Translations under genes and position numbers: made by a program
Notes under the pieces: generated by a model
What the model saw: the letters and a program-made list of their open reading frames with translations, nothing else
Database searches by the model: none
What the model was told of the DNA's origin: nothing
Assembly (NCBI GenBank): GCA_024400895.1
Contig: JAKSMA010000002.1
Span: 1-28,705, forward strand
Length of the DNA: 28,705 nt
Source of the DNA: Muribaculaceae bacterium
GTDB taxonomy: Bacteria > Bacteroidota > Bacteroidia > Bacteroidales > Muribaculaceae
Direction: 5' to 3'
Part shown: positions 12,494 to 14,016 of the stretch, in pieces
Layout of the letters: each line of letters opens with the position of its first letter
How positions within the stretch are numbered: position 1 is the first letter of the stretch

Positions 12494-12512
12494 TCCCCAT
12501 TCTGTACCAAAA

Positions 12513-12617
12513 CGTCGCAAATTCTGCGACGATTTTGTTTGATAAATTTGGAAATGCGACGATATTCTTGTATTTTTGTCGCAAAATATGCGACGTTATT
12601 TGTCTGCTAATGTCGCA
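12513..12617 (+). promoter_or_regulatory. Palindromic operator array over the fic promoter
   Basis: Two full dyads GTCGCA-N5-TGCGAC (12514-12530, extendable to 7-bp arms at 12513-12531; and 12578-12594) plus half-sites TGCGAC (12555-12560) and GTCGCA (12612-12617). If each half-site is the arm of a degenerate dyad, centres fall at 12522, 12552, 12586 and 12620, about three helical turns apart. The half-site lies inside the promoter spacer and the second dyad starts at the last base of the -7 box, so binding should block transcription. The gene's product carries a winged-helix domain, making autoregulation the simplest reading. Confidence 0.8.
12547..12578 (+). promoter_or_regulatory. Promoter of the fic gene
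   Basis: TTTG (12547-12550), 20 bases, TATTTTTG (12571-12578): exact Bacteroidetes promoter. Transcription would begin near 12585, inside the second dyad, and give a leader of about 48 bases to the ATG at 12633. This makes the in-frame ATG at 12576, which lies within the -7 box, impossible as a start. Confidence 0.82.
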
Positions 12618-12632
12618 AAATCGTTGGTTGTT

Positions 12633-13925
12633 ATGAAATATATACACGAAAAAGATAATTGGACGGCATTTAGATGGGATGCTTCGTCAATCACAGCTTT
12701 GCTTGAAAAAGTAAGTAGGAAGCAAGGCCGCCTTTACGGCAGGTTGTCGTCGTTGGGATTCGACAGTCAACTTAGAGCGGTGGCTGAAAACCTAACATAC
12801 GATGTGGTTTACTCATCGGAGATTGAAGGTGTTCGCCTTAATGTAGACGATGTTCGTTCATCGATTGCGAAAAAATTGGGAATCGAAAATATCAAACAAA
12901 CCTCACCTTCTCATTACGTTGATTCGGTGGTGGCTGTGGTGCTTGACGCCATGAATCATTACGACCAAAAGCTGACCAAAACAAAACTTTGTGCATGGCA
13001 AGCAGCGTTTTTCCCCTCCGGCTATAGTGAAGGTGCTCAGATTGAAATAGGCAAATATCGCACCCACGAAGAGCATATTGTGTCGGGAGGATTTGGACGA
13101 GAGAGGATTCACTATATAGCTCCATCACCAGATAGAGTGGAAGGTGAAATGGAAGAGTTTCTTCGCTGGTTTAATACAGAGGAAGATGCGAGTTCTTTGA
13201 TTCGCTCTGCCATTGCCCACTTATGGTTTGTCAGTATCCACCCGTTTGAGGACGGTAATGGAAGATTGGCGCGCATTCTTTCAGATATACTGTTGGCACG
13301 AGCCGACCAAAGCGAGTTCCGATTCTATAATATATCTTCCCAGATCAATAAAGACAAGCATCACTATTATCAAATATTAGAGCGCGTTCAACGTGGCGAT
13401 GGCGACATCACAGAATGGATTATTTGGTATGCCGAAACGCTTTCGCGTGCACTTGACGAGGCAGAGTCGATCGTGACCACAGTTTTAAACAAAGGCTTCT
13501 TTTGGCAGCGAGTTGGTGCGGTGGTAATGACCGAGAGGCAGAAGAAAATGCTGAACCTTTTCCTTGATGGCTATGAGGCGAAAATTACTTCAAAGACATG
13601 GTCGACGCTGGCGAAATGCTCAAAAGACACTGCAATTCGCGACATTCAGGATTTGATGGACAAAAACATTCTTCGAGAAGATATTCCTGGGGCAAAGCGA
13701 CCGAGTTACTCTATCGTTTATGCTCTCGATGATATCGCGAGTTTTTTCACGGGTGTGGAAGTGATAATGGAAAATGGGAATTATTATCTAACGGCATTAT
13801 ATAAAGGCTCCGCGAGCGTTCGTGAAAGATTGCTGACACTTGATGCCGAAAGATTTAAGAAGGGAGACCTGCCGCTTGCCCATCTTCTAAACAAATATTG
13901 CTCTTATATGCATATTGGCAAATGA
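12633..13925 (+). CDS. fic: Fic-family AMP-transferase with C-terminal winged helix
   Basis: The 430-aa protein is predicted to transfer AMP (or another nucleotide part) to Ser/Thr/Tyr hydroxyls. Residues about 1-90 resemble the N-terminal helical domain common in Fic proteins (DUF4172 type) and contain the inhibitory motif SSEIEG at 61-66, matching (S/T)xxxE(G/N) of class II Fic proteins. The active-site loop HPFEDGNGRLAR begins at His203 and is canonical. From about residue 298 a winged-helix segment (MTERQKKMLNLFL ... TWSTLAKCSKDTAIRDIQDLMDKNIL) should bind DNA, followed by a short C-terminal extension. The start is fixed by the promoter at 12547-12578. The gene stands alone, 19 bases beyond the esterase stop its operator begins, and a strong terminator follows. 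Confidence 0.95.
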   Translation: MKYIHEKDNWTAFRWDASSITALLEKVSRKQGRLYGRLSSLGFDSQLRAVAENLTYDVVYSSEIEGVRLNVDDVRSSIAKKLGIENIKQTSPSHYVDSVVAVVLDAMNHYDQKLTKTKLCAWQAAFFPSGYSEGAQIEIGKYRTHEEHIVSGGFGRERIHYIAPSPDRVEGEMEEFLRWFNTEEDASSLIRSAIAHLWFVSIHPFEDGNGRLARILSDILLARADQSEFRFYNISSQINKDKHHYYQILERVQRGDGDITEWIIWYAETLSRALDEAESIVTTVLNKGFFWQRVGAVVMTERQKKMLNLFLDGYEAKITSKTWSTLAKCSKDTAIRDIQDLMDKNILREDIPGAKRPSYSIVYALDDIASFFTGVEVIMENGNYYLTALYKGSASVRERLLTLDAERFKKGDLPLAHLLNKYCSYMHIGK

Positions 13926-13953
13926 GTTTTCTGGACTTAAGGATATAAATATG

Positions 13954-13989
13954 AATCGCCAGAAGTCGTTGTGAGGACTTCTGGCGATT
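13954..13989. terminator. Strong bidirectional terminator between fic and argF'
   Basis: Perfect 14-bp arms AATCGCCAGAAGTC (13954-13967) and GACTTCTGGCGATT (13976-13989) with an 8-base loop. On the plus strand it continues TTTTATG, and on the minus strand A/T-rich sequence follows. It separates two convergent genes. Confidence 0.88.
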
Positions 13990-14016
13990 TTATGTTTGTG
14001 GCCTTATGGGCTGCGA

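What the first reader, a model, noticed from the sequence alone, without database searches (positions are those of the whole stretch)
12513..12632. Four-site GTCGCA/TGCGAC operator array wrapped around the promoter of a winged-helix Fic gene
Seen: two perfect dyads with 5-bp spacer and two half-sites, nearly evenly spaced at 30-34 bp, with one half-site inside the promoter spacer and one dyad at the transcription start. The only downstream gene encodes a Fic protein with a C-terminal winged helix. Inference: the Fic protein binds its own promoter, possibly controlled by its AMPylation state, with cooperative binding along one DNA face.
Basis: partly seen in the sequence, partly recalled or inferred. 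Interest (0 to 1): 0.72.

Follow-up and report, generated by a model that had tools for sequence, protein, structure and literature searches.

The report
Self-recognised operator array of Fic regulators
A bacterium's AMP-transferring Fic enzyme very probably binds, through its own DNA-reading domain, a regular row of sites across its own promoter, and relatives of this enzyme carry matching, co-evolving rows, which gives a concrete DNA target for testing how DNA controls such enzymes.

Summary
The GTCGCA/TGCGAC array is real: six 12-bp half-sites (12508-12617), and the perfect dyad occurs in the 2.18-Mb assembly only here. It is not peculiar to this gene. Most sampled DUF4172-Fic-winged-helix genes, chiefly from Bacteroidota, carry half-sites (consensus TGCGGNGAATAA) in alternating orientation at 17-bp steps over the promoter. 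A convergent pair so spaced occurs in 92 of 107 representatives and 75 of 84 fresh genes; coding controls give 0 of 321 and 0 of 252. Recognition-helix residues 331, 335 and 336 covary with half-site bases 6, 5 and 2. They are the top three background-corrected pairs, agree on a tree built without that domain, and 331 and 335 held in a fresh test stated beforehand. So the Fic protein's own wHTH very probably reads the array. Its position over the predicted promoter, and the published autorepressor CccR, make autorepression likely. Control by AMPylation is untested. Fic autoregulation is known; the shared operator grammar and recognition code are, as far as my searches show, new.

The parts
12508..12519 (-). 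half-site 1 (CAAAACGTCGCA), upstream dyad, left arm
   Evidence: PWM 9.0 bits; perfect dyad
12525..12536 (+). half-site 2 (TGCGACGATTTT), upstream dyad, right arm; the dyad also scores as a terminator-like hairpin
   Evidence: PWM 12.7 bits; upstream dyad within 3 mismatches in 20 of 30 other close-orthologue loci
12547..12550 (+). candidate -33 promoter element TTTG (Bacteroides consensus, recalled)
   Evidence: sequence; 20-bp spacer to the -7 element
12555..12566 (+). half-site 3 (TGCGACGATATT), in the promoter spacer
   Evidence: PWM 11.1 bits; within 1 mismatch in 18 of 30 other loci
12571..12578 (+). candidate -7 promoter element TATTTTTG (TAnnTTTG, recalled)
   Evidence: sequence; TAnnTTTG in 67 of 98 Bacteroidota upstreams v 13 of 189 control windows
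12572..12583 (-). half-site 4 (ATTTTTGTCGCA), core dyad, left arm, overlapping the -7 element
   Evidence: PWM 13.0 bits; core dyad within 2 mismatches in 29 of 30 other loci
12589..12600 (+). half-site 5 (TGCGACGTTATT), core dyad, right arm, near the predicted transcription start
   Evidence: PWM 8.2 bits
12606..12617 (-). half-site 6 (GCTAATGTCGCA), in the 5' leader
   Evidence: PWM 5.3 bits; within 1 mismatch in 26 of 30 other loci
12633..13925 (+). fic gene, 430 aa: DUF4172, Fic domain and C-terminal winged helix, plus a C-terminal extension of about 65 residues
12639..12884 (+). DUF4172 domain (residues 3-84); holds the dimer interface in CbFic2 and SoFic according to PMC10628234
   Evidence: Pfam PF13776, E 7.6e-29
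12813..12830 (+). inhibitory motif SSEIEG (residues 61-66), class II Fic
   Evidence: sequence; such a motif in 104 of 107 representatives
13239..13265 (+). Fic catalytic motif HPFEDGNGR (residues 203-211), intact
   Evidence: sequence; such a motif in 105 of 107 representatives
13533..13715 (+). winged helix-turn-helix (residues 301-361)
   Evidence: AlphaFold2 helices 301-311, 320-327, 331-343, strands 347-349 and 359-361; ten-residue blocks from 301 to 370 have pLDDT 73-94
13623..13661 (+). recognition helix (residues 331-343); K331, I335 and R336 covary with half-site bases 6, 5 and 2
13953..13990 (+). terminator-like hairpin after fic

Best explanation
The array is the fic gene's own operator. 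The C-terminal winged helix of the Fic protein reads a 12-bp half-site (here TGCGAC plus an AT-rich tail; family consensus TGCGGNGAATAA) through recognition-helix residues 331, 335 and 336. Half-sites in alternating orientation every 17 bp are filled by several Fic subunits, probably side-by-side dimers, over the -33/-7 region, the transcription start and the leader. That would block RNA polymerase, so the protein limits its own synthesis. Shown by computation: the array, its conservation, its fixed geometry, and its covariation with the recognition helix. Inferred: physical binding, dimers as the binding unit, repression rather than activation, and any coupling to catalysis.
For: Held-out half-site model: at least 2 sites at 10 bits in 43 of 53 and 48 of 54 held-out upstreams, v 0 of 159 and 0 of 162 coding windows and 0 of 102 and 0 of 105 other upstream windows. 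Geometry: convergent pair at 24-26 bp in 92 of 107 and divergent dyad at 8-9 bp in 84 of 107, v 10 and 5 of 1070 shuffles, 0 and 0 of 321 coding windows, 0 and 1 of 207 other upstream windows (model trained on these 107, spacing not used in training). Longest alternating 17-bp chain at least 3 in 76 of 107, v 0 of 321 (5 bits). Without any site model: 29-bp palindromes matching at 8 or more of 9 outer bases in 54% of 191 genes, v 2.4% of 382 coding windows. Beyond Bacteroidota: 8 of 9 plasmid genes have the convergent pair. Recognition code: top three APC-corrected residue-base pairs are R336-base 2, K331-base 6, I335-base 5, all in predicted helix 331-343. Independent pairs on a tree without the wHTH: 5.5 v 0.0 of 7 (335 I/L v base 5), 6.8 v 0.0 of 12 (331 Q/P/H v base 6 A), 2 v 0 of 2 (336/2). 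Fresh test stated beforehand: I335 gives non-G5 in 5 of 6 and L335 gives G5 in 60 of 66; K/R331 gives C6 in 13 of 15 and Q/P331 gives A6 in 28 of 36; R336 gives G2 in 80 of 82 (Fisher p 2e-4 and 1e-6). Precedent: CccR represses itself through its HTH (PMC9755527, section 10 part 1 read).
Against: No binding, footprint or expression data for this protein. 15 of 107 first-round and 9 of 84 fresh genes lack the convergent pair with this model, among them the partly orthologous L011 (51% identity), and one divergent relative (L203) has no site at all. Promoter elements are recalled consensus matches, and TAnnTTTG is missing upstream of 31 of 98 Bacteroidota representatives. Residue classes for the tree test were chosen after seeing the first table; two other groupings are weaker (335 non-L: 5.4 v 0.0 of 9 pairs, median p 0.06; K/R331 v C6: 4.2 v 0.2 of 7, median p 0.13). 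In raw mutual information R336-base 2 ranks ninth. No N336 gene was in the fresh set, so the N336-T2 rule rests on about 3 changes on the tree. L011 has R336 with T2. The AlphaFold2 model is only moderate overall (mean pLDDT 68). The left flanking half-site is weak (2 or more mismatches) in 12 of 30 other orthologue loci and the upstream dyad is missing or poor in 10 of 30.
Confidence: 0.87

Rival explanations
1. The sites belong to another regulator of the cell, and fic is just one of its targets.
For: No direct binding data exist. The dyad alone does occur elsewhere in some relatives: 11 of 30 matches in 28 genomes lie away from the upstream of fic (hand count).
Against: Off-fic matches do not exceed the reversed-pattern control (11 v 15; 23 v 43 for the 25-bp pair). 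In the own assembly both patterns occur only here. Half-site bases follow this protein's recognition helix, and in 12 of the 13 multi-copy genomes that I compared at least two paralogues differ in both.
Confidence: 0.04
2. Fic binds the array but activates its own transcription, or the array mainly serves as a DNA ligand that sets enzyme activity, with little effect on transcription.
For: CbFic2, the closest solved relative, shifts towards a deAMPylating dimer on DNA (PMC10628234; abstract, passages and discussion part 1 read). The array extends into the leader and upstream of the promoter.
Against: Sites overlap the predicted -7 element and start, the usual place for repression. CccR is a repressor.
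Confidence: 0.1
3. The dyads are RNA hairpins or terminators rather than protein sites.
For: Both dyads score as terminator-like stems; the first lies 20 bp after the upstream ORF's stop.
Against: Single half-sites at fixed 17-bp steps cannot fold alone. Upstream DNA differs between orthologues while the core of the array stays. Covariation is with a protein helix, not between stem arms.
Confidence: 0.03
4. Mobile-element repeats or recombination sites that travel with fic.
For: fic is patchy (46 of 198 family genomes at E 1e-40). In L204 a stretch with the upstream dyad is repeated just after fic.
Against: Copies elsewhere do not exceed the reversed-pattern controls. Geometry and sequence track the wHTH.
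Confidence: 0.02

Closest known systems
CccR of Yersinia pseudotuberculosis (PMC9755527; passages and section 10 part 1 read)
   Same: Fic protein with N-terminal inhibitory helix and C-terminal HTH that binds inverted repeats in its own promoter and represses itself; a dimer-interface mutant binds about 148-fold less well.
   Different: Its footprint is two 10-bp repeats separated by 26 bp, with another sequence; here there are six 12-bp half-sites, four of them in unbroken 17-bp alternating steps. CccR is also a secreted toxin, for which I have no evidence here.
CbFic2 of Coxiella burnetii, PDB 8CIL (PMC10628234; abstract, passages and discussion part 1 read)
   Same: Same architecture (DUF4172, Fic, wHTH), closest solved structure by sequence (E 8.3e-71) and by fold (rank 1). 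DNA binding through the HTH.
   Different: Only random DNA was used, and the authors name a specific binding sequence as future work. At 378 residues (paper) it is shorter; its match to the window protein ends at window residue 360.
SoFic of Shewanella oneidensis (3EQX, 3ZCN)
   Same: Fic with C-terminal wHTH; found by sequence and fold.
   Different: Only about 16% identity in the fold match. PMC10628234 (2023) states that DNA binding of SoFic had not been shown; newer SoFic entries in the PDB (such as 9tc4) have papers that I did not see.
Correlation studies of regulator residues and operator bases, such as those for the GntR and IclR families (PMC4494728, PMC8222616; search listing only)
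   Same: Same kind of inference of protein-DNA contacts from covariation.
   Different: Done there for ordinary transcription factor families, not for a Fic enzyme.

Membership tests
DUF4172-Fic-wHTH proteins (CbFic2 type) | DUF4172 followed by a Fic domain | tested here: met
   PF13776 E 7.6e-29 and PF02661 E 2.3e-17
DUF4172-Fic-wHTH proteins (CbFic2 type) | intact catalytic motif HPFx(D/E)GNGR | tested here: met
   HPFEDGNGR 203-211
DUF4172-Fic-wHTH proteins (CbFic2 type) | N-terminal inhibitory helix motif (class II) | tested here: met
   SSEIEG 61-66
DUF4172-Fic-wHTH proteins (CbFic2 type) | C-terminal winged helix | tested here: met
   AlphaFold2 helices and wing strands at 301-361; fold match to 8cil over 366-372 columns. 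No Pfam HTH match
DUF4172-Fic-wHTH proteins (CbFic2 type) | AMPylation and deAMPylation activity switched by DNA | not testable with these tools
   needs biochemistry
Self-repressing Fic regulators (CccR type) | inverted repeats over the own promoter | tested here: met
   the promoter itself is predicted
Self-repressing Fic regulators (CccR type) | the repeats are read by the protein's own HTH | tested here: inconclusive
   strong covariation but no binding experiment
Self-repressing Fic regulators (CccR type) | 10-bp repeats 26 bp apart | tested here: not met
   12-bp half-sites at 17-bp steps
Type II toxin-antitoxin operon | adjacent antitoxin gene in the same operon | tested here: not met
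   the nearest long ORFs are a sialate-esterase-like one upstream and a convergent carbamoyltransferase-like one downstream (my readings); no ATG-started frame of 20 codons lies wholly in either gap

The most novel reading that the evidence does not exclude
The operator array doubles as the enzyme's off-switch. Subunits lined up on the 17-bp alternating half-sites are held in the dimeric, deAMPylating or silent state, so one promoter both stops synthesis and stores inactive enzyme. This would be a one-gene toxin-antitoxin-like circuit in which the antitoxin role is played by the gene's own DNA, used across phyla with co-evolving site codes that keep paralogues in one cell apart.
Probability: 0.22. 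Interest if true: 0.8.

Novelty: new variant of a known kind. Interest (0 to 1): 0.64.

Why it matters
DUF4172-Fic proteins are abundant (7960 of 8000 scored candidates at E 1e-20 in a capped search), yet the closest relative studied with DNA was tested with random sequences, and its authors call for a specific site. The half-site, its 17-bp alternating grammar and the three-residue reading code supply a candidate site for most of the family members examined. They make it directly testable whether cognate operator DNA sets the AMPylase or deAMPylase state. They also show that paralogues in one genome usually carry different codes, so they need not interfere.

Tried and rejected
Searches failed because I gave a coordinate one base off; the Pfam, NCBIfam and solved-structure searches were then repeated, the PADLOC scan was not. 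The search for related loci on genome contigs found one near-identical locus only. A simple repeated 9-mer statistic gave a modest excess (142 of 164 upstreams with 3 or more copies, but also 253 of 820 shuffles) and was replaced by a held-out half-site model. A wider regulon was looked for and not supported: off-fic matches stay below the reversed-pattern control. I inspected 5 of the 11 off-fic dyads and one off-fic convergent pair: three dyads (L205, L206, L207) lie inside mechanical ORFs, one (L208) between genes with no fic gene in the stretch, one (L204) just after fic, and the pair (L209) between two convergent ORFs; the other six dyads were not looked at. Terminator and recombination readings of the dyads were considered and ranked low. 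Not every hit was fetched: of those that searches did not deliver as loci I chose 80, leaving out the tail of the lists, most fragments and many hits with stops inside; of those that one search did not deliver none was fetched for the first round; of those I chose 60 and left 12 new places out.

Full report
Observation. The window holds GTCGCA-N5-TGCGAC at 12514-12530 and 12578-12594 and single hexamers at 12555 (TGCGAC) and 12612 (GTCGCA). In the assembly (2.18 Mb, 67% complete) the perfect dyad occurs only at these two places, and the reversed control pattern nowhere. TTTG at 12547 and TATTTTTG at 12571 match the Bacteroides promoter as I recall it, so the array covers the predicted promoter, the likely start and the leader of fic (ATG 12633). 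A terminator-like hairpin follows the gene.

The gene. The 430-residue product has DUF4172 and Fic domains, the inhibitory motif SSEIEG and the catalytic motif HPFEDGNGR. Its closest solved relative by sequence and fold is Coxiella CbFic2, 8CIL. The AlphaFold2 model (36 aligned sequences, mean pLDDT 68) shows a winged helix at 301-361 with recognition helix 331-343; blocks from 301 to 370 have pLDDT 73-94.

Homologues. Genome searches at E 1e-40 gave hits in 46 of 198 (family), 32 of 101 (genus), 110 of 393 (order) and 44 of 395 (phylum) genomes (the draws overlap and each includes the window's genome). I fetched 80 further hits and 11 plasmid copies, two from Bacteroidota, eight from Pseudomonadota and one from Spirochaetota. 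The gene was located in 201 loci. Four were dropped (L010, L104, L105, L169), leaving 197, or 107 representatives at 80% identity: 98 from Bacteroidota and 9 from elsewhere.

Close orthologues. One search compared 31 loci, the window's own among them; L010 and L105 (fragments) and L033 and L034 (near-identical to the window) were left out. In the other 30 (59-80% identity, many closely related to each other) the core dyad is within 2 mismatches in 29, the right half-site within 1 in 26, the left half-site within 1 in 18, and the upstream dyad within 3 in 20. In the exception (L008) a near-perfect core lies just outside the range searched, next to the start codon. Upstream DNA beyond the array has no detectable similarity to the window except in L033 and L034, so the array goes with fic and not with the neighbouring gene.

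Family-wide half-site. A 12-bp model (TGCGGNGAATAA) trained on half the representatives and tested on the other half finds at least two sites at 10 bits in 43 of 53 and 48 of 54 upstreams. Coding windows give 0 of 159 and 0 of 162; other upstream windows 0 of 102 and 0 of 105.

Grammar. Adjacent convergent half-sites are exactly 25 bp apart (centre of TGCG to centre of CGCA) in 132 of 170 cases. Adjacent divergent ones are 9 or 8 bp apart in 109 of 136. Same-orientation neighbours (65 and 14 cases) show no such single peak. In terms of 12-mers this is one rule: alternating orientation every 17 bp (sometimes 16). A convergent pair is present in 92 and a dyad in 84 of 107 representatives; shuffles give 10 and 5 of 1070, coding windows 0 and 0 of 321, other upstreams 0 and 1 of 207. 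The full 25-9-25 tetrad is found in 37 of 107. Alternating chains of at least 3 half-sites occur in 76 of 107 v 0 of 321 coding windows (5-bit threshold). A test that uses no site model finds 29-bp palindromes in 54% of 191 genes v 2.4% of 382 coding windows and 2.1% of shuffles; neighbouring odd lengths (25-31) are also raised. Of the 9 plasmid genes outside Bacteroidota, 8 have the convergent pair and 6 the dyad; L203 has no site. L201 and L202 (29-35% identity) keep the spacing with other half-site sequences. In the window the four downstream half-sites start at 12555, 12572, 12589 and 12606.

Who reads it. Mutual information between protein columns (at least 80% filled) and half-site bases over 105 genes, after background correction, puts R336-base 2, K331-base 6 and I335-base 5 first; uncorrected, R336-base 2 is ninth and Q89-base 5 fourth. 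All three residues lie in the predicted recognition helix. The tables: R336 goes with G2 in 94 of 96 and N336 with T2 in 9 of 9; L335 with G5 in 58 of 61; I335 with non-G5 in 21 of 24; K/R331 with C6 in 28 of 29. On a tree of 188 proteins built without the wHTH, independent pairs go the same way 5.5 v 0.0 times (335 I/L v base 5, 7 pairs, median p 0.03), 6.8 v 0.0 (331 Q/P/H v base 6 A, 12 pairs, median p 0.016) and 2 v 0 (336/2, 2 pairs); two other groupings are weaker, 5.4 v 0.0 of 9 (335 non-L, median p 0.06) and 4.2 v 0.2 of 7 (K/R331 v C6, median p 0.13). In 12 of the 13 multi-copy genomes that I listed, at least two paralogues differ in these residues and in their sites. In G105 both copies carry the same three residues and near-identical sites; in G227 two of three share both. 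Other multi-copy genomes were not compared. The window genome's second copy (L095) has TGCAAC sites.

Fresh test. Before fetching more genomes I wrote down the rules. Class and family searches and further fetches gave 89 new loci. One was a fragment, one was at least 95% identical to an earlier gene, three were redundant among themselves, and 84 remained. With the frozen model, 75 of 84 have the convergent pair and 72 of 84 the dyad; coding windows 0 of 252. R336 gives G2 in 80 of 82; I335 gives non-G5 in 5 of 6; L335 gives G5 in 60 of 66; K/R331 gives C6 in 13 of 15; Q/P331 gives A6 in 28 of 36. No N336 gene turned up, so that rule was not retested. L234 and L294 had fewer than two sites and were left out of the code counts.

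Regulon. In 28 genomes with close orthologues (the window's included), 19 of 30 dyad matches and 25 of 48 convergent-pair matches lie upstream of fic (hand counts). The rest (11 and 23) do not exceed the reversed-pattern controls (15 and 43). This fits a regulator that acts on its own gene only, within the sensitivity of exact patterns.

Mechanism. The wHTH reads the half-site; several subunits line the 17-bp array and cover the promoter. The covarying bases (2, 5, 6) lie about 21-22 bp apart in a convergent pair, roughly 71-75 A by my arithmetic. That is near the 70.2 A between DNA-binding helices reported for the CccR dimer, so I favour one dimer per convergent pair with dimers touching at the divergent dyad; this is inference. 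Repression is inferred from site position and from CccR. Whether DNA binding changes catalysis, as reported for CbFic2, is open.

Novelty. Fic autorepression is published (CccR), and DNA-regulated Fic activity is published (CbFic2, with random DNA). A 2026 review (PMC12894286, passages only) mentions both and nothing further of this kind in those passages. My searches (open-licence PMC only) showed no description of this operator grammar or recognition code. Subscription literature was not searched.

On recounting I removed the window's own gene from the orthologue counts, added the weaker tree groupings, corrected the phyla of the plasmid copies, and listed which stray sites were inspected.

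Noticed in passing
L204:1940-2040 (G200, just after the fic gene): A stretch that includes the upstream dyad before fic is repeated directly just after the gene, as if the cassette were flanked by direct repeats.
   Followed up: partly
L208:2046: A lone GTCGCA-N5-TGCGAC with the same AAAAAC lead-in lies between genes with no fic gene in the stretch fetched; possibly a scar of a lost fic cassette.
   Followed up: no
window 13728-13922: Residues 366-430 form a predicted small alpha-beta extension after the winged helix. Hits in the close orthologues and some others (such as L012 and L015) cover it, while most other hits end near residue 362; no Pfam match.
   Followed up: no
L095 (G000:C213): The same genome has a second DUF4172-Fic gene (43% identity) with a different array (TGCAAC half-sites) and a recognition helix with R331, I335, R336.
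   Followed up: partly
L193 (OY726045.1): A 73% identical copy with a similar array (4 sites, convergent pair and dyad) sits on a 146-kb Phocaeicola massiliensis plasmid; 433 plasmid records match the protein at E 1e-15, 339 over at least 80% of it.
   Followed up: partly
window 12513-12531: The upstream dyad, 20 bp after the upstream ORF's stop codon, also scores as a terminator-like hairpin on both strands.
   Followed up: partly
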